Assembly (NCBI GenBank): GCA_020055645.1
Contig: CM034546.1
Coordinates: 133,755,875-133,819,874, forward strand
DNA length: 64,000 bases
Reading direction: 5' to 3'
Source of the DNA: Tomocerus qinae
Lineage: Eukaryota; Arthropoda; Collembola; Entomobryomorpha; Tomoceridae
The translations under genes and the position numbers were made by a program. Under the pieces are notes generated by a model, which worked only from the letters and a program-made list of their open reading frames with translations, had not been told where the DNA came from and did not search any database. This document shows, in pieces, positions 7,803 through 53,956 of the stretch; position 1 is the first letter of the stretch, and every line of letters starts with the position of its first letter.

Positions 7803-10800
7803 ATGTCTAGTAAAAGACCACGACAAAGTGTTAATAAACGACACATTGAAGCTCATGGAACTGGGCGAAGTAATAGCCGTGTCCAGAAGAGTGGTTTGCA
7901 AACTAATTCCAGTGGCGACAATAATTCCAGTTTAAATCGCCAAAAAAATAATGCCAGGTTTGTAATACACTATTTAAGTTATCTAATATACTTGTAATAT
8001 TTCTAAAAAAATAACATTGCATTCTATTTATTTACAGAATGATGTTGGGATTTGACCAACTATGGCAAATTTTAAAAATGGATGCCGACTCGGCTGTTTT
8101 GGAAATGAATCGAATTTCTTCTCAATTACAAAAACTTATTTTAGGACCTGATATTCCATCTGACGTGCTAACATTGCTAATCCAAGTTATCGGGGATAAA
8201 ATATGCAGTGAAGATATCAACTTGAAGGTCATGAGAAATTCACTCTTGGCTAAAATATGCGTCCCAGAATTTCTAACAAACCTCAAGGAGAATACCTACA
8301 GTCTTATGCACGATGAACATGACACAGACTCGAAAAGGTACATAATAATATTATGTTGTCTAAATACTAAAATTACCAATTAAAATACTATATTGATAAT
8401 AATGTTATATTTTCATACTCGTTCAACGGAATCCTTGATTTATATTTATAATTAAACGAAGCAACTAAATAATAATGAAATCCACAAAATAAAAAATAAC
8501 GATTCCATTTGAAGATGTTTATGTTTGGTTTTTTGTAGGTCTGCTGTTGCTAATGACGTGGACGGGTTGGATAAATCACCTGAGAAAGTATTGTCACATA
8601 TGCTTTCATTCTATAGCGTATTTATGCAAACTATGCCAACATCAGCTAGAGAATTGCTATCTAAGAATTTAAAGGCAACTAAACTGGCTCTGAAAAGCCT
8701 AAAGAACGTCGCAGCGACTGATATCATGAAAGATTCCTATTTGAAATTGGAAACCAGATTTTTGAAGCTAGAAAACTGTAGCCAGGAAACCACCACACCT
8801 GGCAGTTTGGACAAAAATAAGGATTTCCAAACTAGACCAACTAGTAAATCGGCGTTTACCAAAGCAGATGTTGAAAGATTATACATGGAAGAACCACCCC
8901 AGGATTTCAGAACTCTGTCTGTAGCTCCAACTAAAGAAGAACTTCGGAGTGAAGAACAGCCCTACCTACGTCCTTGCATTGAAAAGGGAAATTATCTTTC
9001 AGCAGATGTATACTTAGATGTACAGTTCCGATTGCTGAGGGAAGATTTTGTTGCACCTCTAAGGGAAGGAATTCAATACTATTTGGAACAACAAAGGTTG
9101 TAATTTAAATGGCAAAATTTAATTACATTATATCGCTTTTTGAACAATTATTTGTGACAATTCCTTTTATCGTCTATTATTAGACAAACTGGTAGACAGA
9201 AGAAACGTATGCCTTTCGGTACTGTAAGGATCTACAATGGTGTCCAAATAGTAAATGTCAAACTTAATGGGGATATGACGGTTTATACACTTCAATTTTT
9301 GAAAGATTCGTTCAAAAATATTAAATGGGATAAATCTAAAAGGTACTACTACAAAACAATTGTAGATTATTTTAGAATCTTTCTCGAAATTTAATTAATT
9401 TTGATGTAATATGTAGATTGCTCACCGGATCGCTATTGTGTCTTACTGCTGATAAATTTCAGAGCTTGTACTTAGCCACTGTTGTATTTCGACGCCCAGA
9501 GGATTTGAAACAAGGAATGATCGATGTTGTTTGGGAAGGAAACAAACCGGAAATTGGACAGAAGTCTTACTTAATGATGGAAAGCGAAGTTTACTATGAA
9601 GCGTACAGGTAAACGATAATTGCCCAGTAAATATCCCACAAAATGGTAGAAATGATTATTTGATTATTTTCATATTGATCCGTGAATCCTAAGGCTGGTA
9701 TTTGCATAGTAGCAACGAGATTACATTGTATTTGCATTCATAATACAATATATTAAAATCGCAGGCACACCCTATCTTCTTTGCAAAAGATAGAGCTGGA
9801 TAAATACCCAATGAAGAAATACATTGTCGATGCTAATAATGGAGAGATACCAGAGCCATCATATTTAAGTCCTCAAGAAATGGACCAGTTTTGTGAATCA
9901 ATGCTTAATTTTGTGTCATTTAATGAGTCGAGACAAAACAAAACACAGTCAACAGTAGAAATGGCACATACATCTAAATCATTTCCAAAAAGTGAAGCTG
10001 TGAGTGTCAGGACAATCGTCGAAGAAGATATTGTTTCAAACAGAGCTGAAATTAATAATTCTTCGGAAATAAATAAGGTGGTAGAAGATCCTTTAGATTT
10101 AAACAGTTGGCCAACAGCAGATGAATTGGGCATGGACGATTCTCAGTACGTAGCCTTTCAAAGTGCTGTGACCAAAGAATTATGCGTTATTCAGGGTCCT
10201 CCTGGTACAGGAAAAACCTACATAGGTAATCATAAAGTAATCAAATTTAAGCCAATAATTTGTGCTAGTAATATTTTCAATATATATCTAACTACAGGTT
10301 TGCAAATAGCTAAGTTGTTTTTATCAAATCCACAAATCTACGAAATGGGGCACCCAATCTTAATAGTTTGTTACACCAATCACGCCCTGGACCAATTTTT
10401 GGAAGGAATAATTGATATAATGGAAAAGTTGGAAATTTGTTCCAAAGATAATTTAATTCGAATTGGATCGCGATCAAATTCTGAAAAGTTGAAGGATTAT
10501 AGCATACAGGCTCGTATGCAGGAAGCTCGTAAATTGCGTAAATTCGAACGAAATTATGCAATTTTAAGAAATAAAAAGCGAATCAAACTTCAAGATTTGC
10601 AAAATGAGCGAGATTATTTGCTGGACGAGTTAAAAATACTGTCGAGCTTGAAAGGAGTAGTTGACCTTGATACGCTTTCAGTTGCGAATGAATTGAAGAA
10701 AAAATGTCCACGGTTGAATGCAACACTTTTTGGGAAAACTATTCAAACAGGGCGGTACAAATTTAGCAAACAAATCAAAATATACGATTGGTTGGGATTT

Positions 10801-13800
10801 AATGAATGGGATTTCAACAAACGACACTTTGTGGCTAATCGCCAAATAAGAAAATGGTTTGAAATGTCTACAAGAGTATCAATTGTATCGAACGATTCAA
10901 TAATTATCAACGTACCTGATGAGGCATATCCTGCAATGGTAGAAGAGGGAGAAGTAATTGAAGAAGATTATGACATGAATGAAATCATGCAACATCGTAT
11001 GGAAATTTTCATGGAAATGGAAACTACCCGAAAAAGACCGTGGAAAAAAGAAATGGAATTGAAATACGTCATAGCGACTGAATTTGTTGACCAACAATTT
11101 CAAAATGACTCTTCTTTGGTCGCTAAACAGCAATTTCTAAGGCGTCTTTTGGCAGACTTTTATGATGGAAAATTACAATTAACGGAAATTAGCCAAGAAT
11201 TTCTGGAAAATGTTGAAGAGAAACAATATTTTAGTATTGATGACAGATGGGCGATATATTTTCACTTTGTAGAAGCAGCAAGAAACATCATTTTAACGGA
11301 CATTCAACGTTTAGAAACGAAAATTATAGAAACCCAAAAACAACTTCAGGAAGTCAATATTTTGGGAGAATCACAACTGCTTAATCAAGCTATGTTTGTT
11401 GGACTTACAACCACTGGGGCAGCAAAGTATAACAAAGTCTTAAGAATGATGAAATCTCCTATTGGTAATCTTTCTGAAGGGTTGAAGTAAGGCAGAGGTT
11501 GTACAAATACTTATCAACGTTATTGTTTTAGTTAGGTTAGGTCACTCATAAGCGGGTTCTTGTATATTCTGTATATTTCATGGCGCCATTTTTAAAATGT
11601 GCAATGACTGCCTTACTTCAACCTTCTAAAGTATATTTTAAGTAAAATTATCATGATTTTAATCGGTATATTAATTTTACTGCTGTGGTTTTAATATTTT
11701 AGTGATTGTCGAAGAAGCAGCAGAAGTCATGGAATCCCATATTGTGACTTCACTCACAGAATACTGCGGACATTTGATTCTTATCGGTTTTCTTGTCTCA
11801 ATTAAAAGCAAATTAAAAAACAAATACAAATAGCGATAAAATGTTTTTAATATTTTAAATAGGTGACCATAAGCAGCTACGGCCAAATCCAAACGTATAC
11901 AAATTGGCGAAGGATTACAATTTGGATGTTTCATTATTCGAACGCTTAATTAACAATAATATCAGCTCTTGTCAGCTTAAAGTACGGACCAATTGATAGA
12001 TTCTAACAAGTACAAAGTAATTATAATATTTACGCATGTTATCTTCCACTCAGATTCAGCACCGAATGAGACCAAATATTTGCAAACTCTTGGTACCAAC
12101 AATCTATGAAAATCTTGAAAATCATCCGTCAGTTTTAGAATATCCTAGAATTTTTGGAACCACAAAAACATTGTACTTTATTGATCATGAGGAACTTGAA
12201 ACTTGTGTAGGTTCACACATTTTTATATTATAAAGAATCATATTAACTTTAAGTACAGGTATAACATTTTTATAAGCTATGAGATCTTCAACTTTGATAG
12301 GATGATGATGACGCAACAAAATCCAATCCTCACGAAGCATCTTTTTTGGTGAAGCTGTGTCGCTACTTGATTCTACAAGGGTATTCAGCATCACAAATAA
12401 CTATTTTAACAACTTACAAAGGTCAAATGTTTCTTTTGAAAAAGGTACGATAAATCTTTGATAAATTTTGATTATTAGTTCGTACTGTAAGCAAAAATTT
12501 CATGATGATGAAAAAATGAAAATATAATTGGTAATTAATAACAGCTAAATACCCAAGATTCCCAAATAAGTGCGGGCGTTCGCATTACAGTTGTTGATAA
12601 TTTTCAAGGGGAAGAGAATGATATAATTCTATTATCTCTCGTTAGAAGCAATTCCAAAAACAACATTGGATATTTGAGAACGGACAATCGAATTTGCGTC
12701 GCTTTATCACGAGCCAAGTAAACAAAAACAATTACATGTGCAAATAACATTAAAATGAAAGGATACTAAAGAATGAATTACTTTGTTTCGCAGACATGGT
12801 TTGTTTGTGATTGGGAATATGAATGGCATGGTAAGCTCATCTTCTACTTGGACAAAAATTCGCGAAGACCTTGAAAAAGAAAATAATATTGGAAGTCAAT
12901 TGGAATTGAAATGCGAAGTCCATGGAGTTGTCACTCTAGTGAAAAATAAAGACGACTTTCAAAAAGTTCCAGAAGGAGGATGTTTACGAGTGTGTGAAAA
13001 AGTTCTCCTCTGCGAACACAATTGTCAAATGGTTTGTCACTCCTACGACAGAGACCACAAGGAATACAAATGCAAATTTCCTTGCAAAAGAATGTGTCCA
13101 AATGATCATCCTTGCAGAAAACCTTGTTACATTGAATGTGGGAAATGTACGGTCAAAATGGACAAACTTCTTCCCTGTAAGCACACAATTAATATGGAGT
13201 GTCACATTTCTGTTCGAGATTTTAAGTGCGAGACTCGCGTAGAGAAAAAACTACCCTGTGGACACAAAAAATTATTAAAATGTAATATTGACCCAAAAAA
13301 ATATGATTGCTATGAAAACGTCATAAAAGTTCTTCCTTGTGGTCATTCGTTGACTTCCAATTGTTACATAAAAGTAAAATCAATCAAATGCAAAATTCTC
13401 ACGCCACAAATAATGCCAAATTGCGGCCATGAGGTAAAATAATATTTTTTAATTTAATTTTAACTCCATAATGGGTAGTAATTGCTTACTACGTATTACA
13501 ATTAGGTAATGGTGCACTGCTACATGAAAGAAGATAATAAATTGTGGAAATGCCAAAACCCTTGCGACATTCAACTGGACTGCGGTCACACTTGTGGACA
13601 AAAATGCCATTTCGAAATTAATCGAGATCATGTAGGTCACATTTGTACAAAACCATGTGGTCGCGTATGTTACTCTGGACACACGTGCCAAGCAAATCAC
13701 AAATGTTGCCACCCTTGTCCAAAGTGTGAGGTTGTTGTCGACAGAGTACTTCCATGTAGTCACGTTACACAGATAGAATGTCATATTGACACGAACAGCG

Positions 13801-16396
13801 TTTTCTGTGGACAGATTTGCCGTAGAAAATTAGACTGTGGACACGAATGTCAAAAAAGATGTTCAGACGCATGTTTATGTGAGGTAAGGTCCAACACAAT
13901 TGCCATTTGAGCTGGGAAATTGTACCTTTATATCTTACTTGGGAATTTTTCTGTTTAGATGAAGGTAAAGAAGATGTCTATAGATTGTAGTCATGAACTT
14001 AGCCTGAAATGCCATCAACATCCTAGTAGAGAGTTTTGTCAAACTTTGGTGCCAGGAAATTCCGTCTCTCCATGTGGACATGCAGTTATGATTCCATGCA
14101 CCATAGAAAATACAGGTAGGCATCTTCAAAAATTAAAATGTTAAGTCGGATTCCAATTAATAATCCGATTAGTTGTCAAAAGAATTATTAATCTGTATTT
14201 AGCCACACCTCAAGATTGTCTGATGCATTGCAAACATCCATGCGACGAAATCATCACGGAAGGAAATTGTGGCCATAAATGCAGTGGAAATTGTTTTTCT
14301 TGCTTTCAAGGACGTATTCACAAACGATGCACCGAAAAATGTGAACGAAACTTACCCTGCGGCCACTCGTGAGTATAAATCCTAAAACATATTCAAATAA
14401 TATATTCTAACTTTAGCCGCAATCTTAATATTTATATCTACACTCTATTGTCTTACAATTGTATTTAGATGCAAGTTTCCTTGTGCTGCGTTGTGTCCTC
14501 CTTGCCAAAAGCCGTGCAATAATAAATGTGAGCATTCAAAATGCAATCGAGAATGTGGCTTTCCATGTTCAGGATGTAATGTGAGTCTAAATAAATTAAA
14601 AAATACAATTAATCAAGTATAATCTTAAAAATAATTTTTAATTCTCAATCAATTATGTAAGGAACCTTGTAACTGGGAATGCAGTCATGAAAAGTGTACC
14701 AGACGCTGTCGTGAAAAATGCGATCGAAAACCATGTAGGAAAGTTAAATATAAACTCCTTTTTAATAACTTTTAATAATAATTACGTTTAACTATATAAA
14801 TTCATATTATACTAATTTTATTATGCATGTAACTTAATTTTGTTTTTGTTCTTTAGGTAACTTTCCTTGTACGATCCCTAAAAAATGCGGCCATTTATGC
14901 ATTGGTTTGTGTGGAGAGGCTTGTCCTCCTCAATGCAAAATTTGTAATGCCGAGGAGGTGGTAGAAATATTGTTTGGGAATGAAGATGATCCTGATGCAA
15001 GGTTTTATATTATTAAAATAATTTAATCTAGAAGGTTCTTGTAACTTCAATCATGAAATCCCTATTTTTCTGTACAGGTTCATCTACTTGGAAGATTGCA
15101 AGCATATTATTGAGGTAGAAGCCATGGACAAGCATATGACAACAACTGTCGTCGAAAATGGGATTTCTGTCAAGAAGTGTCCCAAGTGTAATTCTGTCAT
15201 TCAGAATTGCAAACGATACGGTGATATTTTGCGTAAAGGAAAGGACGATATTTTAGAAATCAAAGCAAAAATTCATGGTTTATGTCAAGGCATCCAGGTT
15301 AAAATGGAAAAAATGACAAAATACTTTCAAAATTATAAAAAACACGATTCTTTGCAAGATTTTCGCGAATTCCTGCAGAAATATTTTGTTTTTTCTAACA
15401 AAAGACACTGGAATGGGAATTTAATTTTCCTGAAAAGGGTAACGATGCTTTGGATGTAAAATATGCTGGCATAATGATCTTTATCAATACATTTCTAAAA
15501 TATTATACGTAACAGATAGACCAATATTTGTTTGAATCCTTGGACAATATGGTGATGTGGTGGAGGAATGCTTCTGATGACTTGGATATCGCAATAAAAT
15601 TCAATGCGGGGGATCAATTACAGTTGACTCTTAGATACCAAGCATTTTTTGCTGAAGTGATGAAACGGTTACTTCCATTGAGTCAAAGGGAGATCATGGA
15701 TTTTGATAGAGAACTCCAAAAAATATCTGCACGGCAGAAATTGTATAGAAGAGCTGCAATTGACAATTTTTATTCACTTTCGGTTGCAAACGAAAAGTAT
15801 GCTACGATCTTTAAATTCCTTGAGGATTTAGAGTTAAAACCTTTCACGTCAAAAATCAAGGAGCAATTTTTGAATTACCTTGCCGTATATTTTTTTAAAT
15901 ACGTTGCAGAAAATAACTATAACCATTAACTTAAACATTGTATTAAATTTTATTAATGTATAAATATTATTTGTTACAATTAGGATCTAGACAGTGTAAT
16001 AATTCATGATGTAAAACTTTGGAGGGAAGAAGAGAGATCACGTAAAGAAATATTTCAGGCGGTAGGATTTGGAGCTCATCACTGGTACAGATGTCCTAAA
16101 GGTAATTAATTATACAATTTGTTATTTCCTAACTTCGTTATTATTATGTTGTAGCTAGCCTATATATATATTTGGCTCGATATTTCTTTTTACAAAACTT
16201 GTTTATAGGCCATTTGTACGTGATTGGGGATTGTGGACAGCCTAACCAAACTGCAATTTGTCCAGAATGCAAGGAAAACATTGGCGCTTCAGGTTATCAT
16301 CAATTGGCTCCAGGAAACACACACGCATCTGCAGACATGTCAGAAAGTAACATTCCTGGTCCAGATATTGAATTTCTTGAAAACAACTCTGGTTGA
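7803..16396 (+). CDS. ZNFX1: ZNFX1: SF1 helicase with NFX1-type zinc fingers, complete
   Basis: There are 23 exons: 7803-7957, 8038-8337, 8539-9096, 9184-9342, 9417-9608, 9765-10225, 10298-11464, 11703-11786, 11863-11981, 12054-12206, 12301-12444, 12545-12717, 12794-13433, 13506-13883, 13959-14115, 14203-14368, 14469-14580, 14662-14734, 14857-15001, 15078-15438, 15516-15884, 15984-16101, 16209-16396. They sum to 6,372 nt (2,123 aa) with every phase consistent. Order of parts: N-terminal [10 protein letters not shown]...YLRP block; Walker A GPPGTGKT (about 599-606); Walker B-like [10 protein letters not shown] (about 998-1005, Glu for the usual Asp); [14 protein letters not shown] (about 1067-1072); [10 protein letters not shown] (about 1182-1190); ALSRAKHGL; a long Cys/His array of NF-X1 fingers; and a C-terminal RZ finger, CPKGH...CPECKE (about 2059-2085). 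Vertebrate ZNFX1 is an RNA-binding antiviral sensor, and nematode ZNFX-1 acts in small-RNA inheritance. The role here is inferred from the family. Confidence 0.95.
11480..11623. mobile_element. GGTTGAAG-family MITE in ZNFX1 intron 7
   Basis: Terminal inverted repeats GGTTGAAGTAAGGCAG.../...CTGCCTTACTTCAACC, 144 bp. It lies wholly inside the intron 11465-11702, starting 16 bases after the donor site. Internal landmarks (TTAGGTTAGGTC, AGCGGGT, CATGGCGC) match the UGT copies in inverted orientation. Confidence 0.8.
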
Positions 16397-25017: not shown

Positions 25018-27042
25018 TCAATGTAAAGCACTCTGTGCACTTGAATTCTGACAAGGAGCTACCTTTCGGATAGATTTCCGTCGATACCTTTTCACTAATT
25101 TCTTACAGATGAGTAGATATTTGATTATGTAGTTGAAAAATGAGATCAACTGAGTCTTTGAATGTTTGAATGTGGTTATCGTTATTTGAAGTGCAGAAAA
25201 GAAATATTGCGAAAAGTTAGGAATAGAGAACGAAAGATTCATTTTGTGGCAAAACAGTTCCAGAACAAATGACATGAGCAGCCCTAAGAATAAATATGCA
25301 CAGAGTATAAAAATTGTGTGGAATTTCATTCCCAAGTTGATCCCCACGGGCTGGCTCTCTTCATACATCAATCTGAAATGTGATCGTGTATATGACTCGA
25401 ATTCAATGTATAAATGCTGTTCTTTCAAAATGATTAAAAGTCCATTCTGAAGTATCAGTTGCATAAACGATCGAAAGTTATGACGATAACAATAATAATA
25501 TTCATAATAAGCAGGTGTTGTCTCGACGATATCCTCAGTCACTATGCAGCGTTCTTTTAACGTTGATTTTATTGGCATACTGTAAGCTTGGCTCTGACCA
25601 ATGTCTTTACCAGTGAGGTCAAATATTTTCATGGAATAGTTAGTCAACAATTCCTGTTGTACTCCAAGATGATGTTTAATATTATTCTTTCCTAAGTCAT
25701 AAATGTAAACACTGGTATTCGTCTTTTCCGACATATTGTACTTCACAAATAAGTGGTCTTTATTGTCATCTGTGTTGAATCGACTGTCTATGACCGACAG
25801 TAATTTGTAATCGTTTTCGATGAGTTCCACAAAACCAGAAAATTGTTTTATGTCTGGGGGCGCAATAATTTCGCTAGTAATCCAAGTTGCATAGAGAGTA
25901 GTGATTGTGAATCCCGTGGTTGCTACTATTAAGAATAGACTCCTCCTTCTGTTATAGATAACTCCCTGGTCTAAGAGAACAGCTGCCAAGGACATCAAAA
26001 TCCATTCCAGTTTCCTAGCTAAGGAGGAATTCGTCGATCCGAAGACTAAAACTAAAAAGGAAAGTGGGAAAAGAGAGAAGATGAGGATCCAGCAATAATC
26101 ATCAAATGTATTCTGAATCAACACCGACAGGTGCACCGAGTGGAAATTCGGGGAGGCCTCGCAGTAAAAAGGGACCACCTCATTAAAGTATTCAATGAAT
26201 GTCGTTTGCTCCCACATGTAGGAATATCGTTCAGTAAAATTCAAAAACATTCCAATAAAACCACAAAGTTGTTTCCTCTCTATGAATTCGGTATCGTATG
26301 AATAAATGGGAGTAAAATTTAATTTGTCGGCCATTGCTTCTACAGTTTGAAATGTTGGGGAACAAGGAATCTTGAAGTATGTTTTAATGGCTGAATAAAT
26401 AGAATTTTTGCAATGGGGGATTATAATAGGGGATTTGTATGGAAAATCAATAATACCTGCAATTTGGACGCCTTGCAAATGTCCATTTACAGAATACCAA
26501 ACTCTTTCCCAATTTTCATCTTTGATTTTTATATCTGCGACGAATCTTTTTCGTTTGTATAGTAGTCCAGTATACATTGTATTGTGCGTCGAATTTTCGA
26601 TGACCAATACAAAAAGGGGACTAGTCAGCTCATGTCTGAAATATGAGGAAAATTTTCTGCGCGTCTTAAATTTGCTTCTGTCAATGACAATGATGAATGT
26701 AGAAGACAGACGATTGATTTCCTTCCCAAAATAGTCATTTAAAAAGTCAAACGGGTCGTATTGCTCCATAAGAATGTTTACACTGCAGAGGTTGTTTGAC
26801 AAGTCTCGTGGATAGTTCTTAGCTCGCTTGAAGAGGCTTTTGTCGTAGTCGTGTGCAGCCACAGTCCATGGCTGTAGATGTTGATTGGATAAAATAAAAC
26901 TTGTCGTCCAAACAGAACCAGGAAATGTGACCAGATTGAAATCACAATTCTTGTAAAATATCAAATTTCGGAATCCGTTGACTGTCCAAAGATAAATCCA
27001 AATCCACACAAAGATATTACAACAAAATATTCTGAAATTCAT
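25018..27042 (-). CDS. Ionotropic-receptor-like channel subunit, intronless
   Basis: A single 674-codon frame. It has a hydrophobic N-terminal signal (about 8-24), a long extracellular region with several Asn-glycosylation sites, then membrane segments at about 317-335 (CWILIFSLFPLSFLVLVFG) and about 368-386. The second follows a pore-loop-like stretch (WILMSLAAVLLDQGVIYNRR). A last helix lies at about 598-620, before a short basic cytoplasmic tail. This is the iGluR/ionotropic-receptor topology: part-1 ligand domain, M1, pore, M2, part-2 ligand domain, M3. The canonical glutamate-binding residues are not evident, as in divergent insect IRs. It is probably a chemosensory subunit; the ligand is unknown. 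Confidence 0.7.
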   Translation of the reverse strand: MNFRIFCCNIFVWIWIYLWTVNGFRNLIFYKNCDFNLVTFPGSVWTTSFILSNQHLQPWTVAAHDYDKSLFKRAKNYPRDLSNNLCSVNILMEQYDPFDFLNDYFGKEINRLSSTFIIVIDRSKFKTRRKFSSYFRHELTSPLFVLVIENSTHNTMYTGLLYKRKRFVADIKIKDENWERVWYSVNGHLQGVQIAGIIDFPYKSPIIIPHCKNSIYSAIKTYFKIPCSPTFQTVEAMADKLNFTPIYSYDTEFIERKQLCGFIGMFLNFTERYSYMWEQTTFIEYFNEVVPFYCEASPNFHSVHLSVLIQNTFDDYCWILIFSLFPLSFLVLVFGSTNSSLARKLEWILMSLAAVLLDQGVIYNRRRSLFLIVATTGFTITTLYATWITSEIIAPPDIKQFSGFVELIENDYKLLSVIDSRFNTDDNKDHLFVKYNMSEKTNTSVYIYDLGKNNIKHHLGVQQELLTNYSMKIFDLTGKDIGQSQAYSMPIKSTLKERCIVTEDIVETTPAYYEYYYCYRHNFRSFMQLILQNGLLIILKEQHLYIEFESYTRSHFRLMYEESQPVGINLGMKFHTIFILCAYLFLGLLMSFVLELFCHKMNLSFSIPNFSQYFFSALQITITTFKHSKTQLISFFNYIIKYLLICKKLVKRYRRKSIRKVAPCQNSSAQSALH

Positions 27043-27414
27043 TTTTCGAAAGACTTTGACTACTTAAATCGCCAAGGGCCCAACCCAATGTGAAAGTAGA
27101 CAGAGGAATGGCGTCATTCTGTCCGATACGTAAGGAATACCCGACTTGGCCATGTAGTCGTCCACAGTAGCAAGTTGAAAACACATTTCTTCTATAAGTA
27201 TACCGTAAAACCAAGAATACTTCCTCCGTCTGTTGTACTAATACACTAAATCCCTAAAATATGTAAGCGATCTCTTCATTTAAAATCGGATGACTTCGAC
27301 ATGCACTCATAATACTTTATAAATTCTGCTTTTTTCACTAAGATGAATGTTTACAGAAAAAATTTTCTAATGGTAATTACACATTTTTCAAAAAAATATT
27401 GTGTTGGATAAGTG
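27043..27414. other. Upstream region of the ionotropic-receptor-like gene
   Basis: No clear promoter motif. An open frame overlaps the start of the receptor gene but has no recognisable content. Confidence 0.3.
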
Positions 27415-32197: not shown

Positions 32198-34500
32198 TTA
32201 ATTTTTCTTTTTTATGTTAGGCAATTTTTTCTCTAAGCCACAGCATTTGTGAAGAATGAATTTAAAAATCTTTACTGCAATGTAGATCAGTAGAAGGAAA
32301 ACTCCAACAACAAAAGAAACTGTATCAAATGAATGATACTGAAACCAATTCAAATCTCTTGCTGGAGATCGGAGATGTCTGGCTCCTTTGTGTCTAATTA
32401 CATATTCAATCCAATAAACAGCCATTTCCAGTGGTTTTTTGGGACGATCTTGATAAACTGCTGATATTTCCTTAGCACGCGTTCCGTATCTATTATATCG
32501 AAAAATTGGATATGAAAAAATTGAAACGACGAGTGCAGTTATTATAATTGCAAGATTATTTAAAGATTATTTAAAGATTTAGTTACTTGGGTTCATAGAG
32601 GATTTTGTTAATAGCATCAAAAACAGATTCTTCAGTTAAATCTCTATACTCAAGAGCAATTGCATATCCAAGGTTAGCATTGTTCTTCATGTTCGTATCC
32701 TGATCCGAGAACATTGGAATCCCAACTAAGGGAACGCCGTGATAAGCAGCTTCGACTGTGCTTCCTAAACCTCCGTGGGTAATAAACATTTTAACATTTG
32801 GGTGTCCTAAAATATCTTGTTGAGGTAGCCATTTTTCCAATTTAACGTTTTTGGACAAATCCGCCATGTCTTCACCGTCCCATTTCCACAAAACTCTTTG
32901 CTTTAATTTGGAAAATACGTTGACAAATAATTTTCTGAAGGATTCAGGCGTAATTTTGGAGTGTATTATTGAACCCATACTGAAGTAAATGACGCCCTCC
33001 TTCCCAGCTCCAGTTATAAAGTCATCCAATTCCTAGATGCGGAAACCAATGAATAATTAACCGAGCAGACCTCAAGTAAAGAGACAAACATTTACAAATA
33101 GGATTGACTTTCGGGTTGAAGTAAGACAGTGGTTGCACATTTTAAAAATCGCGCCATGAAATACACGGCATACCAAGACCCGCTTTCGAGGGACCTAACT
33201 CAAGTTAATTAAAACAATTTCATTGATAGATATTTGTGCAACCACTGCTGTACTTCAACCCACTTTCTAAGTGCAAATGATACAGGATATTTTCAACTAT
33301 CAAACTTAAATTTATCTCCAATTAAGCGATTTTACTGGCATATATAATATAAATAATAGATGGTTGCCATATTTATATGAGACACTGTCATTGGCAAATT
33401 ACTGTACATTAGTTTTAAGTTACCTTTGGGAGTGGCTGTGCTGGTGCGCAAGCCATTCCGCCCACTTCCACAATATCTGTAATAGATTTTTTGGTTGAAG
33501 TAAGACAGATGTTGCAAATTTAAAGAAAATCGTGCCATGAAATACACAGGGCATACCAGGACCCGCTTTCGAGGGACCTAACCTAACCTAATTAACACAT
33601 TAACATTGATAAGTATTTGCACAACCTCTGCCTTACTTCAACCGATTTTTTTATACTTTTCGTCGCAAGATGTTTTTAATTTTTGAATTGTGTGCATATA
33701 ATGAGCAGTACTGACAAACCTGGCATGAGTGGCCGTGGAAGATTTAGTGTAGGATGACTATTGGAGAGAATGAGACTGACATTTTTCCTTATTTCATCAA
33801 CAGACGGTGTCCTGTCTCCAAAAAATTCTCTGTAAACGTTTTCCACTTTTGGGATGTAGGAATAATTGAATTCAATGTTCATCATCATCTGGCCAATTAA
33901 ATTGGCAATTCTTTCGAAAAATGTCATTTTGTCTGTGAGGCCAAGGAATATATGTGGGACGAAAGAGAACGGAGACGGAGTGCCTGTTGCAACCGAATTC
34001 CACTGCATTGTAGACATTGGACTTAAGATTATGAAAGGAACTTGCAAATCATGTACCAATCCGAAAGTACATTCGTTCAGTATGGAACTAATTAAAATGA
34101 GGTCGAACTTTTCCTTCCTCAAGGCTTGGACTTCGTCCATTTGGTAGTAAGTTCTGCATAGGTTTTGGCAAATTTGGATTCCAAATGATATGACATTGAG
34201 ACTTTCTTTTTTCGTCCGTTTTTCAAACATGTCCATGTGATCCTTTAGCGACGAGGATGTAAAAGTTGGTCCAACAATTTCCCTAATGTTCGGGTGGGTT
34301 TTTGATTTCAAACCACTTACCATCGTTATCGAATGACCGCGATTGGCTAGCTCGTAGATTAGCGGGTCGTAAACTGCTTTGTTACTTTTGCTTATGAAAA
34401 AAGACAAAAATAGAATCTTCTCTGCTGAGCATTTGGGCAATTCTCTTTCCAGTATGGAAATAAACACAAATGTTGCTACCAGGGAAACGTAAAACTTCAT
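32198..34500 (-). CDS. UDP-glycosyltransferase (UGT), complete
   Basis: Exons on the minus strand are 34500-33720, 33476-33424 (53 nt), 33032-32587 and 32489-32198, totalling 1,572 nt (523 aa) with all phases consistent. A signal peptide (MKFYVSLVATFVF) leads the acceptor-binding half. The C-terminal half has the UGT signature WLPQQDILGHPNVKMFITHG followed by GLGSTVEAAYHGVPLVG and DQDTNM, which bind the UDP-sugar. Residues near 490-510 form a single membrane anchor (VVGVFLLLIYIAVKIF), and the protein ends in KKKN, an ER-retrieval dilysine tail. UGTs conjugate sugars to lipophilic compounds and pesticides in the ER lumen. The micro-exon supplies IVEVGGMACAPAQPLPK, which links the halves. I start at the second Met because the signal peptide begins there. 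Confidence 0.92.
33114..33260. mobile_element. GGTTGAAG-family MITE in UGT intron 2
   Basis: Ends GGTTGAAGTAAGACAGTGGT and CTGCTGTACTTCAACC; core CATGAAATACAC...CCCGCTTTCGAGGGACCTAA. Length 147 bp. It lies between the micro-exon and the catalytic exon. Confidence 0.8.
33493..33643. mobile_element. GGTTGAAG-family MITE in UGT intron 1
   Basis: Same family and orientation as the 33.1-kb copy (151 bp). Its left end lies only 16 bases from the 3' splice site of the 53-nt exon, so the polypyrimidine and branch region of that intron is MITE-derived. Confidence 0.8.
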
Positions 34501-36553
34501 TTTTCCGATTCTAAATAAATTAAAAATAATCGTAAACATTAATAACTATTCAATAGATATAGGTACTCGAAATGTTAATAATTACTTAGGTGTTAGAAAA
34601 AACTTGAATGCATTCGCTCAATTAACACTAAATCGCCAGTAATAATGATCTCTCTATGAGTTGTGATTGGTAAGAGTAGGGAATTCAATAAAATAATGTT
34701 CTGCTTAGTAAAAAAAATTACCTTTAAAATCTCTCGCGGCAGATAATGAAGTTTTGTAAGATGAGCCCCGACAACTTCTAAGATTATTTAAAAAATAAGA
34801 TCTTAGGACTTACAATAGAGACTATTGTAAACTTATAACTTAGGTGCTGTTAATAAACTTCTCCTTTTAGCATTAAATAAATGCATCAATACAGACATAA
34901 GAATTTGAGTTATTAACTATTTACATATCTGTAGTGGACTGTGTCAGTTTACTTTACGGTTCTTGCATGATAATTCTTATCGATGTGTACTATATCACCA
35001 ATAATGCTAATCAGTCAAACTTTTATGTTTCATTTCTTATATACAATAATTTACTTGTGTCAAAACAGAATAGGTACAGTGACTTTTTATAGCGTTCCAT
35101 CGTGTGTCGACTAGGTTAGTAATGATTGAAATAATGAATGACAGGATGGTGTAGGATTGGCGATTCAGATACAGTGAAACTAAGAAGAGTCCAAGAAAAA
35201 TGGGAACATGCTTTATACATTACAGCACTGTATACACAGTTTAATTTTTATAACCCTGGCTAAAAACGAAAGTTTATTCCTTCTGTGACCTTTTTGCAAA
35301 ATCTTTTTCTGATAAGAGTTAATATTTCTGGTTAATACAAATAACATATTATTATAATAAAGTATTACCAATGTGCATATTAACATTTTACTTGTAAACA
35401 TCGATTTAATTGATGCTATATATTTACGTTTTATATTCAATTTTCACTGCGTAGAATAATTAATTAGCAATGTTATTGTATACTAATAGGCTTCAGAGCA
35501 TAGCATGAGTGACTATCGTGGCTTATTTTTTAACCGTTATAATATTGTTTCCTACTTCACATTCATTCATTTATTTGTTTATGTTATTACATCAAGCAAT
35601 CACTATCACCACTCACCACTATAGTATAATCGTGTTGTTCGAGTTGCGCAGTGAAAAATTCCGTAGGTCGGTATGTATGTTTATATCATCGTGTGCTAAC
35701 CTGCCGCTCTGATAACGCAGCTAAGCAAAACTCAATCGTAAACTTTACTTAAATGTGGCAAATCTCAACAAGTCTGTATGTTTCACAACAAAGCAGTGTA
35801 TGACATTCTGTATGCAAATTTCCAACTTTCAATGCATTTAAGGTTTCTATTATTTTCATGTGCGGGAAAATTTAAAATTTGGCCATTTATATTGAAATTA
35901 TGATATTTTTCAATTCGCAAGGACCTAATAGCTTAATTAATTGATCTGGCTATGAAATTCATTACTTGAAAGACAATGAAATTTGTGATTGAAATATTGT
36001 CATGTTTTATGGGCCAAGTGCCAGCAGAAAACATTAATAAAATCAAATCAAAATAGCTTAATTAAAAAACTAAAGATACAAAACATGTTGTAATTTGCGC
36101 CAGAACACACACTACCTTTATCCTAACAGGACCTAGGTCCTGTGACCGGCTAGTATTATAATAATCTTGGTTAGACTTCTTATAAGTAAGTCTGATAAAT
36201 CGAATAAACTAAACTGTTTATTAAAAATGTTTCATATGCTCCCCCCCCATTGAATTATATTATCAACATTTCATTGATTTCATACATAATTTAAGTTTAT
36301 CATCTTTTCGATCTGTTAATTAAAGACACATTGAATATTTACAATAAACTAATTAAAGTAAATGTAAATGCACGAAACTGATATAATGTCTTACCATGTA
36401 GCTATTATTAAAAATTGTAATAGTATTTGGATGTATTCATTCAGCAATTCGCAATTAATGTATTATTCGTTTAATTAGCTTTTACATAAAATTGGTAATG
36501 GGAAGTAAGGGCCATATTATCGATATTCAATGGTGTTGTTTAACCCTATGAAG
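34501..36553. other. Intergenic, no gene seen
   Basis: AT-rich with only chance frames. An octamer run of C occurs near 36241. Confidence 0.35.
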
Positions 36554-37656
36554 CTATTTCTTTTTCTTTTGAGCATGAGCCCACGGAAATCCTCGGTAAT
36601 AAAGTAGATCTTGAACATTATGACTAATGTTATACGCGTTGAGCATCGCTGCCTCTCCAAAAACATCACATATTTCACGATTTCGTCTTCCTAAATTTAA
36701 AAAGGTTTCACACATTATTTCAGTAAATTATCTTAGAAGTGAAATGTTAGTAATAGTTGATAATTTTGATAATAATATGTTTAATCCCTTGGTTATATTT
36801 TCGTGATTGCTACTATCAATTATCAAAACAACTTTTCTGTTAAATAAATTAAATTAAATACTTACCACTTCTGCGATCCTTTTTCTTTGGCTTCTTGCCC
36901 CCTTTTGCATTCCCGTTTCCATTCTGATTCAATTAAACGTTTCTATCAATCTTACATTTGCAATAATGTATATGTACAATATTAATTATTATGTCACATT
37001 TCTTATTTTTCTAACTCTATTCCACCAGATGAGATTTTTGTGTTGTCCAGTTAATTCGGCTTAATCTTTACTCTACATAAACATAAAGTGGGGCATGCGC
37101 ATGGGATTCTTTCACTATTCTTGAATAAATGTTTGTATCTATGTCCGTAATATTTTGTAATTAATGAGTAAGGGTAATATTTTGTAACTAGTTGAATCCT
37201 AGCACACAAAATGTGCTAGAAAATGTTGCAATCAGTAAATTTCTAGCGACTGCGCATTGGCCCGAATTTCACTAATTAATTACAAAATATTACGGACATA
37301 GAAACATACAAACATTTATTCAAGAATAATGAAAGAATCCCATGCGCATGCCCCACTTTATGCTTATGTAGAGTAAAGATTAATGAACAAGGACTAGGCT
37401 ATCAGTACTGAGTCCAATCAACGGTCTATGAAATTCGGGCCAATGCGCAGTCGCTAGAAATTTACTGATTTCAACATTTTCTAGCACACTTTATGTGCTA
37501 GGATTCAACTAGTAAAACAGAAAATGCTTTTTAATTGCATTTTTTGTCAAAATACTACTGAATCGCTCGAGAAATTATGTCATCTAGTCCAATTTTAGAC
37601 ATATATAGTTCGAGAATTAGAAATATGTCATAAACAAATTAAAGTCTTACGTTCAT
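36554..37656 (-). CDS. SMKR1: SMKR1-like small lysine-rich protein
   Basis: Three tiny exons: 37656-37651 (ATG AAC only), 36923-36866 and 36690-36554, totalling 201 nt (66 aa). Donors AAC|GTAAGA and AGTG|GTAAGT and acceptors GAATCAG and AATTTAG join in phase. The N-terminus is Gly/Lys-rich (AKGGKKPKKKDRRSGRR). Then comes the diagnostic core EAAMLNAYNISHNVQDLL with YYRGFPW, and a poly-Lys end. This matches the family pattern of vertebrate small lysine-rich protein 1: AAMLN-x-Y-x-I/S-HNV-x-D-x-L, then RGF-x-W, then a Lys tail, at nearly the same length. The vertebrate gene is expressed in ciliated cells, with no defined function that I know of. The 727-bp first intron is filled by fold-back repeats. 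The 2-codon first exon is the least certain part. Confidence 0.72.
37062..37517. repeat. Two interleaved inverted repeats in SMKR1 intron 1
   Basis: Arm a (about 37062-37165, with GGGGCATGCGCATGGGATTC) pairs with a' (about 37272-37385). Arm b (about 37188-37272, with CCTAGCACACAAAATGTGCT and GACTGCGCATTGGCCCGAAT) pairs with b' (about 37430-37517). The order is a-b-a'-b', so the two hairpins cannot both form in a simple nested way. Each pair is nearly perfect over about 85-105 bp. Confidence 0.75.
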
Positions 37657-38767: not shown

Positions 38768-39073
38768 TTAATTTGGATTGTGACGCTTACCATTGTAGCC
38801 AAGTCCATAGCCCGAGATTCCCCCAGGGTAGCCAAGATTGTTAATTCCAGCGTTGTATCCGTTTCTGTAGATTCCTTGAGAGTAGACAGTTGAGACTCTG
38901 GGAGAAATTATTGCTCCACTTGGTCCTGCAATAATGGGCTGCCCGGCGGAGTAAGTCTGGACAGTCTGGAGTGGTGAGTAGACTGAGCCGACTGAGCCAA
39001 ACTCGTCAATTGGAGCAGGAGCAGACAGTGCGACTGCGACAACGGATGACAACAATAAAATGATTTTGGCCAT
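38768..39073 (-). CDS. Secreted Gly/Tyr/Ser-rich protein, cuticle-like
   Basis: 101 codons with a clear signal peptide (MAKIILLLSSVVAVALSA, cleavage before PAPIDE). The mature chain is low-complexity: Ser/Val/Tyr repeats (VYSPLQTVQTYSAGQ), then a Gly/Tyr/Asn-rich end (GYPGGISGYGLGYNG). This composition is common in arthropod cuticle or secreted matrix proteins. A donor-like AATG|GTAAGC at about 38791 could splice out the last six residues to a further exon that I did not find; otherwise the gene is single-exon. TATAAAA on the same strand at about 39180-39187 is a likely core promoter. Confidence 0.6.
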   Translation of the reverse strand: MAKIILLLSSVVAVALSAPAPIDEFGSVGSVYSPLQTVQTYSAGQPIIAGPSGAIISPRVSTVYSQGIYRNGYNAGINNLGYPGGISGYGLGYNGKRHNPN

Positions 39074-39179
39074 TTTCTTGGATATTTCCTGGCTGATATG
39101 TCTTCGTCTTTTATTTCTGAAAGTTCTTTTGCTAGTGGTTGTATTGCTTTGCTATGCACTCTTCAACTGCTCGTCTTCC

Positions 39180-44365: not shown

Positions 44366-47300
44366 TCAGCGGTAGAAATTTCTAGTAACAAGTGAGTAAC
44401 TTGTTTTTCGGTTTTTCTCATCTGGAATACCTAATTCGTTAGAGATAGCTCGTCGTTTTCGGTCATTACTCAAGATGTTCTTTTTCTTCTCCGCGATTTC
44501 TTCCACTTCAGCTTCCGAGTCAGATAATAGTGTGCGATTTGTTGTAGACGAACAAGGACTGCTGCTAGGATTCGAGGAGACCATCGCCACAGGAGGCAGT
44601 TGATCAATTACTGCATTGGAGGTGATGGTAGTGGCCACTACAGCTTGACTTCTTTTCTTTGCTTTGTTTTCCATGTCACTGGATGTTTCACGTTCCAATG
44701 AAGGTGTCACATTTTTAGAAGCACTAGTAAATACTGCAGTGCTAGAACTTATCTTGGCTCTGGCTCTGTAAATGGTAAAATAGCATCAAGATTTTGTCAT
44801 TTACACCCAGAAACATTAAAAAATACCGTGTCATTCGAGTGGCGAATCCGTCCCCGGTCAAAGTCTCCAGATCACCATAAATCGAAGATGCCTCTTCACT
44901 GAGATGCTTAACTCGAGTCTGGTGACAAAGACAATGTAAATAAAAATACCAAAATTGCAATTAATATATCAACGTACCAGCGCTTTGCTTTCGCTCGAGC
45001 GTCCAGTTTTACTTTTGGATTTAGAATCCTTCACTGGTAAGGACAAACGGTCCCTGTGACGGAAAGAAGTTTTTTCCTCATTATTTTTTAATTTTGAGTC
45101 AGGTTTTCTAGGCGATGCTTTTGCAGAACGTCTGGTAACAGTAGTTTTCTTTGTAGTTGAATCGTAAGCAGAATCCTATGGAAAAACTTATTCATTTTAG
45201 AGATAATTAGTGTAGTATTATGTTTAATTGTTTAAATAAAGACAGTCGCATAGAAGTTTATGTACTCAATCCTTACCGAGCTGTCATCGTCAGCCCAGTC
45301 TGTTGATTCCAGTCTTTCTTTTCTCGATTTTGGACTCTTTTTAGGACTGATATTTCGCGAGGAGTCACTTTCATCTGCTTTTTCTTCCGTATCACTATTA
45401 TTCTTCGTGTTAATGTTATTTTGTTCCGATAAGACGTCTGAAAACTTCACTATTTGTTTCTCCTTACAAATATTCGTTTCATCTGCCTCCTCAATGGATT
45501 TTGTGGGCAAAACTGTGAATTCCTTTGCTTCTTCACTTGGTTTGGATTCCTTTGCTTCTTCACTTGACTTGGATTCCTTTGCTTCTTCACTTGGCTTGGA
45601 TTCCTTTGCTTCTTCACTTGGCTTGGATTCCTTTGCTTCTTCACTTGGCTTGGATTCCATTGCGTCTTTACTTGGGTTGGATTCATTTGCTTCTTCACTT
45701 GGCTTGGCCTCCAATTTTTCATCACTATCATCTTCTGAAAGAGAATGAACCGTGTAGCTTTCGTCATTATGGTCATTAATTGTTTTTAATGTAATAGAGA
45801 CATCCTCCAAATTAAGCTGCTTTATTTCTGGTACAGAAGTCGAATTTAGATCCTGTATTTTCTCCCCCGTTGGCGATTTATTAGGACTGCTCATTAAAGA
45901 TAGTATTTCAGGCAGAGGTTGTCCTCCCTCTCGTGGGAGAATTTCGGACAACATGGTCAGTGTTGGAGCACTTGCTACTTTGAAACAAAATTCATCATTT
46001 TAGAAACAGAATGTACAACAAATTAGAAAAAATTAAGCAAAGAATACTTGGTGACATGTATTTAGGTCCGTCATCTTCAGAAGATGCCCCAACAACTGCT
46101 GTGTGAACGAGGTCCTTCAGTTGAGGAGAAACGTCAGGGTTGTTAGGTGTAGCTGAAATGCAAAAAAAACATATTTTTACTTTAGTATACTTAAAAGTAA
46201 CAATGCTACAAACCTACTCCACAGTCACTAGCCGACAACTTAAAGCAAACAAAGGAATGTATTGCATTTAAATTCAATGGTGTAAATTATAAAATTAAAT
46301 AAAAGCTCCAGAAAAACATTTAAGCTTACATTTTTCTGGCGTTAATGAGACTTTGGCTCCTGGTTTCTGGAAACAAAAGCAGAAAACGTTTTTAAACATG
46401 ATTGGATACACAATAAACTGCATACTGCATAATGAAATGTTTAATAATGGCAAATTCATAATTTTTATTCAATTTACCTCGCCTATTGACGCATCTATAT
46501 TGTTATCAGTCACGGAAATAACGGATTCATTAACTGGATCTTGAATTTCGGATTCCTCCGGAAGCACAATTTTATCCACAAGGTTTAATAATTTATCTTT
46601 GAGGGTAACGAAAAAGATTAGCTTAAAATTCAATTTTTTGTTTGATTTCCAATTATTGAAAAACTTGCTCTCACCGGCAGGATCTTTTGTGCCTGAATGC
46701 CGAGTGGATGCACTGCTTGATTCAGATACATCTGATTCTATATCTGAATCCAAACTGAAAGAATGACGGCAATATCAATTATGTTTAAATAATTAATGAT
46801 CAGCTGAAACAAATTAAGTTGATTGAATTAAATGCACTATATACTCCATATCATCCGAGAAATCTGACAGATGATCATCATGAATGCCACTCTCGATTTC
46901 CTCAACTTGTTTACACATTTGAACGTACTGATCTTTTCCTTGGGTAATTAGGAATTTCAGTTCTTTAATTCGTTCTGTAAAACAACATACACAAGTAGAA
47001 TGTAATCAAACGTAAAAACTGTAGAATATTTGTATAAATACGTTTGATCGTGCTTTTAAATCAATACAAACCATTACCATCTTTTAAGGTGCTGATAATG
47101 GATTCAACAGTGGACTCGGTACTTCCACGGTTACATTTTGGCTTTTCAACGTTATCCAGCAGTGCATTATACTGCCGCTCACAATTTTTTGGAGAGAACC
47201 ATTCCAATGGTCGTCGCGTTTTTTCAAAATGGGCTTTGATAATACGGCTGACACAATCCCTGAAAAGTAAAAGTGGAGTTTGAGAATCATTTTACTTTAA

Positions 47301-51665: not shown

Positions 51666-52669
51666 AGAATTCCCACACTCCTACTACATTAGTTATATTA
51701 TATATGATTGTGTACATTAAGTAAAAACTATCTATTCACTATTTTGTCTCAATAAACAGTCTCTGAGTTGTTTTTAATTTTTTGCTTCACTTGACATTCA
51801 AGGCCAATTTATACTACGATAGTTTAAAGAAATGTCTTATATTAATTACCCTTTTCAGCTATCTTTTTAGCTCATTTTTAATTCTTTTAATTGGTTTTTG
51901 TTTGCCGTCGAATGTGGCAATGATCGAAGCAATGAACTGAGAAGAAATCGTAACCATAAATCGTGAAACACAATTGGCCTGGTGGATGGTATATTGCTTT
52001 TCAGTTAAGATTCCTTCGCGTCTCAGCCATGAAAACAAAATCATTTAACTGGATTAAAAATAAGTTGAAAAATATTGCCGAGAAGAATAATACATACACA
52101 TACGGCATTCAGTAATTAATATAATTATATACATAGTGCATATATGTCCGTATAAAATAACGTATAATAGTACCAACTTAATAAGAATTATTATGATTGG
52201 ATCCAATTGATATATCAATGCATTTAACTACTACCACAGTGTATAACTGTACACAATATAGTAAATTGCTTTGATTTAAATTGAACTCAAACTCAGATGA
52301 TATTATGCATTAAACCAGAGTTATTAAACGTGGTTACGATAAACAATTTTGAGTCGCCGCTATTAACATTTTATATCTTTGCTCAGTATAACTTCTTCAC
52401 TTGAAGACAAAAGTCGAAACAGATTCATTTATTGTGGTATGTAAGAACGTAGCACATTTGCATATTCTTTAAAGTGACATCAATTTTTTGGACAACTAAA
52501 GGTACAGGTATTAAAAATTTCTTTGTACTTTCATACTACATATTCATACATATTTAAGCTGGAAGATAATTTTCATAACAGCAAAGAAATCTAGATCTTC
52601 AAAATTGGAAAGTTCTTAAAATACTTTATTTTATTTTACTAGACAAGATAGAACATCGCCAAGGTCATA
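51666..52669. other. Spacer before the nicotinic-receptor-like gene
   Basis: One minus-strand frame (52044-51859) has a plausible acceptor just upstream and fair composition (FSWLRREGILTEKQYTIHQ), but no recognisable homology; I would not call it a gene. The rest is AT-rich. Confidence 0.25.
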
Positions 52670-53956
52670 ATGAAAGCTCTGGAAGTACTGTTAATTACTT
52701 TGGCCTTGTTTGCCAAAAACTCGGAGCCATCTCCAAATGAAAAGAGATTACTTCATCATCTGCTAGATATGTACAACACTTTGGAACGGCCCGTTGAAAG
52801 CGAATCGAAGCCAGTTGTGGTCAAGCTTGGGCTGACCTTATTGCAAATTATCGATTTATGTGAACAAAGTCAAATTCTGACGACAAATGCATGGTTGCAT
52901 ATGGAATGGTCGGATTCGAACTTGAAATGGAACACTTCAGAGTTTGCGAACATCACAGATATTCGTATCCCGCCCCACCGAGTTTGGAAACCGGATATTT
53001 TAATGTACAACAGTGCAGACATGGCATTCGACTCCACCTATCCAACAAATTTTGTGGTTAAATATGATGGCAACGTTTCCTACATCCCTCCGGGTATTTT
53101 TAAAAGTACTTGCAAGATCGACCTGACATTATTCCCTTTTGAAGAACATCAATGCACGATGAAATTCGGCAGTTGGACCTACGATGGACATACGATGGAC
53201 ATTGTATTGCATTCCGAAGATGGAGGGGATTTGACAAGTTTTACATCTAATTCTGAATGGGAAGTTCTGGAAATGCCAGCAGAGAAGCATACGAATTATT
53301 ATTCTTGCTGTTCGGAACCATATGTAGATGTGACGTTCACAATCCATTTACGACGCCGTGGAGAGGGAGTGCTGCATACTTTAATGTTCCAATTTGTACT
53401 CATCTCTGCTATCTCCTTATTTGGCTTCCTCCTCCCAGTCAACTCCAAAGCCAAGTTATTTCTAAACCTTGCAGCTATTTTCTGCATTATTTTCATGATC
53501 AACACTGTCAACACTACTCTGTCAATCCCTCTTGGCCATGTCCCCTTCTTTTACAAATATTTCTCCGCTTTAATAATTATTGTACTAATATCGATTCTCT
53601 CATCCATTTTAATTCTGAATTTTGTTGCCAACTCAAAAAATTCTGATGAAATACCCCAATGCATTCGTGCTATTTTGTTGAAATTTATTCCAGCTATTTT
53701 ATTTATGACTCAAGGTAAATTAAATGAAAGAAAACGTGGCGGCTGCGAATTGGACGAACAATACTTATTGAATCAAAATTCTGAGCTTTCAGTAATTCGT
53801 AATGAGATTAAAGTCATCACTGACAAACTTCGAAAGGATGAAGCTCAAGAAGATGTTGCCAAAGATTGGATATTCGCAGCCAATGTTGTTAACCGACTAT
53901 CTCTGATTACTTTGACAATCATAACGGTCATTATTACCGGCGCATTTTTAGCATAA
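52670..53956 (+). CDS. Nicotinic acetylcholine receptor-like subunit, intronless
   Basis: 428 codons in one exon. Signal peptide about 1-18. The ligand domain holds the alpha-type set: loop D W75...W80, loop A WKPDILMYNSAD (Y113), Cys-loop C148-x13-C162, loop B GSWTYDG (W169), and loop C YSCCSEPY with the vicinal C213-C214. Four helices follow: M1 about 235-255, M2 about 262-281, M3 about 294-319, M4 about 402-424. M2 is unusual: the normal GEK start reads KAK, so the Glu that forms the cation-selectivity ring is Ala, and the gate leucine aligns with Phe. The M3-M4 loop is short. It may be a divergent channel subunit or a ligand-binding partner. Lack of introns suggests a retrocopy origin, though the protein is full-length with no stops. 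Confidence 0.85.
   Translation: MKALEVLLITLALFAKNSEPSPNEKRLLHHLLDMYNTLERPVESESKPVVVKLGLTLLQIIDLCEQSQILTTNAWLHMEWSDSNLKWNTSEFANITDIRIPPHRVWKPDILMYNSADMAFDSTYPTNFVVKYDGNVSYIPPGIFKSTCKIDLTLFPFEEHQCTMKFGSWTYDGHTMDIVLHSEDGGDLTSFTSNSEWEVLEMPAEKHTNYYSCCSEPYVDVTFTIHLRRRGEGVLHTLMFQFVLISAISLFGFLLPVNSKAKLFLNLAAIFCIIFMINTVNTTLSIPLGHVPFFYKYFSALIIIVLISILSSILILNFVANSKNSDEIPQCIRAILLKFIPAILFMTQGKLNERKRGGCELDEQYLLNQNSELSVIRNEIKVITDKLRKDEAQEDVAKDWIFAANVVNRLSLITLTIITVIITGAFLA

What the first reader, a model, noticed from the sequence alone, without database searches (positions are those of the whole stretch)
36554..37656. Arthropod-type SMKR1 micro-protein hidden in three tiny exons
The core AAMLN-x-Y...HNV-x-D and RGF-x-W, with Lys-rich ends and 66 aa total, matches the vertebrate small lysine-rich protein 1 pattern, yet no single exon exceeds 137 nt and the first codes only Met-Asn. 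Gene finders would normally miss it. If real, it extends a poorly understood ciliated-cell protein to arthropods. A decayed axonemal dynein remnant in the same window is a coincidence worth noting.
Basis: partly seen in the sequence, partly recalled or inferred. Interest (0 to 1): 0.75.

Follow-up and report, generated by a model that had tools for sequence, protein, structure and literature searches.

The report
Springtail gene for small protein SMKR1
The three tiny exons are a real, probably springtail, copy of SMKR1, a small lysine-rich animal protein linked to testis, but arthropod copies were already named in public databases, so the find is sound and fairly ordinary.

Summary
On the minus strand, exons 37656-37651, 36923-36866 and 36690-36554 (6, 58, 137 nt) join into 201 nt coding 66 aa plus stop. 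The family call holds too: a profile from 18 vertebrate SMKR1 proteins scores the product at 61.2 bits against 13.5 for the best of 20,000 shuffles, and marks one of 2,848 six-frame segments of the window. The claimed novelty fails: the closest protein found is named 'small lysine-rich protein 1-like [Folsomia candida]', and many listed insect proteins carry the family name. The exon 2/3 junction is supported by an ORF, apparently unspliced Folsomia DNA, that leaves the annotated Folsomia protein exactly there. The Met-Asn first exon is less certain, though vertebrate models hint at a similarly tiny first coding exon. Function is not shown. Published expression links SMKR1 to testis, so a role in sperm flagella or motile-type cilia is the best guess (about 0.5). 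The dynein remnant is real (DNAH17/DNAH9-like, 3660-3946) but about 33 kb away, probably coincidence.

The parts
37651..37656 (-). Exon 1 (coding part): ATG AAC, Met-Asn, phase-0 donor gtaaga
   Evidence: Sequence. In a scan of 3 kb upstream (first exons up to 300 nt, rough recalled donor matrix, score above 4) there were 4 candidates: two ATGs sharing one donor inside the neighbouring ORF (9.12), this one (5.72) and one at 4.02. Not proven by transcript.
36866..36923 (-). Exon 2, 58 nt: lysine-rich stretch NGNGNAKGGKKPKKKDRRS plus the first base of a Gly codon
   Evidence: Sequence; 14-residue tblastn match to Folsomia P0001, 78.6% identical (11 of 14), E 7e-4.
36554..36690 (-). Exon 3, 137 nt including TAG: conserved SMKR1 core and Lys tail
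   Evidence: The one of 2,848 six-frame segments above the inclusion threshold with the vertebrate-only and with the insect-side profile; junction shared with Folsomia.
36924..37650 (-). Intron 1 (727 nt), phase 0
   Evidence: Inferred from GT-AG ends and frame.
36691..36865 (-). Intron 2 (175 nt), phase 1, splits the Gly22 codon
   Evidence: GT-AG ends; same position in Folsomia, from P0001 against P0003.
37061..37514 (.). Nested inverted repeats inside intron 1 (fold-back or MITE-like insertion)
   Evidence: 85-nt arms 96% complementary and 78-nt arms 97% complementary; blastn found no further copy in the window.

Best explanation
[quoted passage not shown] Shown here: the gene anatomy in the sequence, family membership, and the exon 2/3 junction. 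Inferred: that it is transcribed, that exon 1 is correct, that the host is a springtail, and that the protein works in cells with motile-type axonemes (sperm, and possibly chordotonal sensory neurons). Inferred mechanism: the conserved bent helix and RGF-x-W loop dock onto one specific partner, while the disordered Lys/Arg-rich ends hold it to an acidic surface such as tubulin tails. The confidence below is for identity as a working SMKR1 gene; I hold the ciliary role at about 0.5 and the docking mechanism lower.
For: Folsomia candida 'small lysine-rich protein 1-like', E 6e-22, 83% identity over 61% of the query. Vertebrate-only profile 61.2 bits against a best shuffle of 13.5 of 20,000. Profile-profile probability 99.6%, 43 columns. 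D30, N39, H45, R54, G55 and K63 invariant over the 34 sequences of A5 (arthropod, vertebrate and unassigned). Intron 2 position shared with Folsomia. Model of the exon 3 peptide: helices at residues 12-23 and 25-31 of 44, mean pLDDT 73.6, pTM 0.38. Computed pI 10.3. Springtail sperm have an axoneme (PMC7140630, passages).
Against: No transcript data. Exon 1 has a moderate donor; Folsomia's annotated N-terminus is longer and has no credible match in the window (best E 0.068, 17 kb away). No ciliary localisation in the passages seen. No PDB chain matched by sequence. The exon 3 model is weak and its fold search empty. The ant paper reports SMKR1 as a gyne-brain gene (PMC7343836, passage), which does not suggest sperm. 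Folsomia candida, which carries the best match, is described as parthenogenetic (PMC12190879, passage), so a sperm-only role would not obviously keep the gene there.
Confidence: 0.9

Rival explanations
1. SMKR1 orthologue, but exon 1 is wrong: the true first exon lies elsewhere upstream (or the start is non-AUG) and the N-terminus is longer, as in Folsomia.
For: Folsomia P0001 has 25 residues before KGGKKPKKK; the MN donor scores only 5.72.
Against: Many listed insect proteins begin M plus two residues before the Lys-rich run (MAGKGKKKK, MGGKGKKKK), and short vertebrate forms do likewise (20 of 99 by a crude tally). ORFs P0204, P0208 and P0215 look like intron ends read in frame into that point. 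No Folsomia-like N-terminal exon found in the window.
Confidence: 0.25
2. A recently dead SMKR1 copy (pseudogene) rather than a working gene.
For: Fold-back insertion in intron 1; no expression data; a decayed dynein fragment shows that dead genes occur in this window.
Against: No stop or frameshift over 66 codons, GT-AG ends at both introns, the invariant core residues kept.
Confidence: 0.05
3. Chance assembly of Lys-rich low-complexity ORFs resembling SMKR1.
For: Lys-rich ends alone give weak matches to unrelated proteins (TRPM1, E 7.5).
Against: A 38-residue piece with no Lys (residues 24-61) still scores 43.1 bits with the vertebrate-only profile.
Confidence: 0.01
4. SMKR1 orthologue whose role is not ciliary (for example RNA or chromatin binding through its basic ends).
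For: pI 10.3; reports from ant brain, broiler brain and human cortex (passages) and tumour studies (titles in the listing).
Against: Testis and spermatid association; the core is far more conserved than the basic ends.
Confidence: 0.35

Closest known systems
Small lysine-rich protein 1-like, Folsomia candida (P0001)
   Same: 83% identity over 61% of the product; same exon 2/3 junction; shared core NREICDVFG and NAYNISH
   Different: Longer Asp/Glu/Pro-bearing N-terminus; shorter Lys tail
Insect small lysine-rich protein 1 (for example P0049 Ceratitis, P0050 Linepithema, P0073 Leptinotarsa, P0079 Nilaparvata)
   Same: D-F, M-x-N-A-Y, H, D, R-G-F and W of the core and a Lys tail (A2)
   Different: C in place of the window's S before the conserved H in the 26 members of A2 other than the window and Folsomia; these four are 84-91 aa against 66, mostly through a longer Lys-rich head
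Vertebrate SMKR1 (for example P0123 Gorilla, P0150 Bos, P0193 Pantherophis)
   Same: AAMLN..Y...HN, L, RGF-x-W, Lys-rich ends, 65-69 aa in these short forms; tiny first coding exon suggested
   Different: DILSPAAM in place of DVFGEAAM; 35-45% identity to the window product for the nine vertebrates
GUY1 of Anopheles stephensi (called a small lysine-rich protein in a cited title)
   Same: Descriptive phrase; small protein (56 aa)
   Different: Y-linked; sequence not compared here

Membership tests
[quoted passage not shown]
   61.2 bits, E 1e-16 with a profile of 18 vertebrate sequences (of 99 found); best of 20,000 shuffles 13.5
[quoted passage not shown]
   hhalign probability 99.6%, 43 columns; the arthropod-side set A2 (28 members) includes the window product and one unassigned JGI protein
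[quoted passage not shown]
   66 aa, 10 Lys and 6 Arg, pI 10.3
[quoted passage not shown]
   N39, H45, R54, G55 invariant and W58 at 90% or more over 34 sequences
[quoted passage not shown]
   Exon 2/3 junction shared with Folsomia; first junction only suggested in vertebrates, from protein models
[quoted passage not shown]
   No family that covers SMKR1 turned up: 0 Pfam and 0 NCBIfam families for the window product; among 28 members only scattered weak matches, best E 0.019
Axonemal or ciliary protein | Presence in a solved axoneme structure | tested here: not met
   No credible PDB chain by sequence with the window product or arthropod-side profiles or by fold (weak model); no PDB search was made with the vertebrate profile, so this does not exclude the role
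Axonemal or ciliary protein | Published localisation to cilia or flagella | tested here: inconclusive
   Search SMKR1 + cilia found two papers, neither about its location in the passages seen; 7 of the 22 SMKR1 papers were looked into
Axonemal or ciliary protein | Expression in testis or ciliated cells of this species | not testable with these tools
   No RNA-seq at hand

The most novel reading that the evidence does not exclude
SMKR1 is an old animal microprotein of the motile axoneme whose odd gene start, a first coding exon of only one or two codons, has been kept from springtails to vertebrates, and which has escaped axoneme structures because it is tiny and mostly disordered.
Probability: 0.25. 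Interest if true: 0.4.

Novelty: new member of a known kind. Interest (0 to 1): 0.17.

Why it matters
It confirms a correct annotation made from raw sequence alone and adds one orthologue, probably collembolan, to a family for which I found no Pfam model, no solved structure and no established function. The family's presence in laboratory insects such as Tribolium (P0038) makes it testable. It does not extend the family's known range.

Tried and rejected
Pfam, NCBIfam and PDB searches for a domain or solved structure gave nothing credible. The weak PDB hits (TRPM1, E 7.5; viral main proteases, E 1.6-1.7) are chance. One of 28 members touched the Pfam family SPMAP1-like (sperm microtubule associated protein 1) at E 0.063; I treat it as chance, since the other weak matches there are unrelated enzymes and domains. 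The fold search with the 44-residue model gave one match at E 7.0 and is uninformative. A Folsomia-like N-terminal exon was looked for and not found. One stronger upstream donor (score 9.12, used by ATGs at 38808 and 38793) was rejected because it lies inside the neighbouring ORF at 38768-39151. Eleven recalled dynein motifs found no dynein, only a helicase P-loop at 9757-11487; six recalled dynein pieces then found the fragment at 3663-3800. A link between that fragment and SMKR1 was considered and dropped: about 33 kb apart, with other genes between. The mosquito papers appear there through a cited title on GUY1 (seen for PMC5061544 only); that sequence was not compared.

dN/dS could not be tested, as no Folsomia DNA was fetched. 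The insect-side set was gathered with a profile that contained the window product; the vertebrate set was not, so I rest membership on the latter. Folding the full 66-aa product was not tried.

Full report
What is there. The minus strand at 37656-36554 holds three short pieces with GT-AG intron ends: ATGAAC|gtaaga...atcag|58 nt|gtaagt, and ...tttag|137 nt ending in TAG. Joined, they are 201 nt and code for 66 residues.

Is it more than chance. A single-sequence search of about 5.8 billion proteins returned two hits among three candidates. The better is 'small lysine-rich protein 1-like [Folsomia candida]', E 6.0e-22; the other is an unassigned JGI protein, E 7.3e-8. A profile of these three then found 207 proteins, of which 120 were listed. 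I gathered vertebrate SMKR1 separately, with a human sequence recalled from memory; the database answered with 99 proteins, the top ones named SMKR1 at 98-100% identity. A profile from 18 vertebrate members of those 99 scores the window product at 61.2 bits (E 1e-16). The best of 20,000 shuffles of the same letters reached 13.5. A 38-residue piece without any Lys still scores 43.1. In 2,848 six-frame segments of the window, only the exon 3 segment passes the inclusion threshold (E 1.7e-14; next 0.73). A profile of 117 insect-side proteins agrees (E 6.6e-20; next 0.11). Comparing the 28-member arthropod-side set, which includes the window product, with the 18-member vertebrate set gives 99.6% probability over 43 columns.

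How sound is the gene model. Exons 2 and 3 each match the Folsomia protein. P0003, a 57-residue ORF from an unnamed source, shares its last 42 residues with the Folsomia protein and departs from it exactly at the Gly whose codon the window's intron 2 splits. The simplest reading is unspliced Folsomia DNA read from the intron into exon 3, so this intron is shared. Exon 1 is less sure. In a scan of 3 kb upstream with a rough recalled donor matrix, four candidates scored above 4; two share one stronger donor that falls inside a neighbouring ORF, this one scores 5.72 and the last 4.02. In favour of exon 1: many listed insect proteins begin M plus two residues before the Lys-rich run. Several mammalian models carry unrelated N-termini that meet the common sequence at the same early point (P0125, P0128, P0130, P0140, P0141, P0158), and P0204, P0208 and P0215 look like intron ends read in frame into that point. 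A regular-expression tally over the 99 gave 20 short starts, 64 extended and 15 without the pattern. It is crude: in some 'extended' rows the pattern fell in the C-terminal tail (P0188, P0191, P0200, P0210, P0214, P0218, P0219). This is inference from protein models, not DNA, and the exact phase of the vertebrate junction is not established.

Intron 1 is lengthened by nested inverted repeats (37061-37514) with no other copy in the window, probably a fold-back transposable element.

What it is. It is SMKR1, from a springtail or close relative: the nearest relative found is Folsomia, with shared core residues. The species was not identified; the own-genome search did not complete. Arthropod SMKR1 is not new. 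Entries named for it include Folsomia, Adelges, Microplitis, Ceratitis, Linepithema, Anoplophora, Leptinotarsa, Nilaparvata, Sitophilus and Halyomorpha, and an ant transcriptome paper names it (PMC7343836, passage only). The window's own protein was not in the listings, so it counts as a new member.

How it may work. No mechanism is established. SMKR1 appears in 22 held papers, by their titles mostly expression or association studies; I looked at passages in seven of them. None of these passages links it to cilia. A 2025 structural study of mammalian axonemes does not mention SMKR in its main text but reports unassigned densities (PMC11779644, passages). The 44-residue model shows a bent helix (residues 12-23 and 25-31) with loose ends at modest confidence (mean pLDDT 73.6, pTM 0.38). 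My reading is a small adaptor: the helix and RGF-x-W loop bind one partner and the basic ends bind an acidic surface, in cells with motile-type axonemes. I hold the identity at above 0.95, a working gene at about 0.9 and the ciliary role at about 0.5. Against the last, the gene is annotated in Folsomia candida, described as parthenogenetic (PMC12190879, passage), and is reported from ant gyne brain. A role in sensory cilia would reconcile these but is untested.

The dynein remark. Of six recalled probes, the AAA5 piece hit 3663-3800 (+) at E 9.6e-8; every other hit had E of 0.34 or more. The 48-aa reading matches DNAH17 (E 2e-12) and DNAH9 (E 2.3e-10) among solved structures. A following piece at 3866-3946 matches the next residues of DNAH9 and DNAH17 (E about 8e-4), after which the frame is lost. 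So a decayed axonemal dynein fragment is present, about 33 kb from SMKR1.

Verdict. The claimed extension to arthropods is already in the databases. Interest is low.

Noticed in passing
window 3660-3946 (+): Decayed axonemal dynein heavy-chain fragment, closest to DNAH17/DNAH9, two exon-like pieces with the frame lost in the second; no other convincing dynein hit in the window with six recalled probes.
   Followed up: partly
window 37061-37514: Nested inverted repeats (85-nt and 78-nt arms, 96-97% complementary) inside intron 1 of SMKR1, probably a fold-back element; single copy in the window.
   Followed up: partly
window 52652-53953 (+): Cys-loop ligand-gated channel subunit, 434 aa in one open frame (Neur_chan_LBD E 6e-72), with a YYSCC motif recalled as typical of nicotinic alpha subunits; a single-exon copy could be a retrogene.
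   Followed up: no
window 8015-15929 (+): Run of ORFs, one with an AAA_11 helicase domain, others Cys-rich, by eye like an NFX1-type zinc-finger (ZNFX1-like) helicase gene.
   Followed up: no
window 32198-34545 (-): UDP-glucosyltransferase gene pieces (PF00201 on 33679-34545; the other two pieces by eye).
   Followed up: no
window 25021-27063 (-): Single open frame of 681 aa without a Pfam match at E 0.001; by eye like a divergent ionotropic receptor.
   Followed up: no
window 45232-45999 (-): ORF with tandem ESKPSEEAK-type repeats.
   Followed up: no
P0204, P0208, P0215 and mammalian models: SMKR1 of vertebrates and unassigned sources seems to have a first coding exon of one or two residues, where alternative N-termini join; could be checked directly on genome annotation.
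   Followed up: partly
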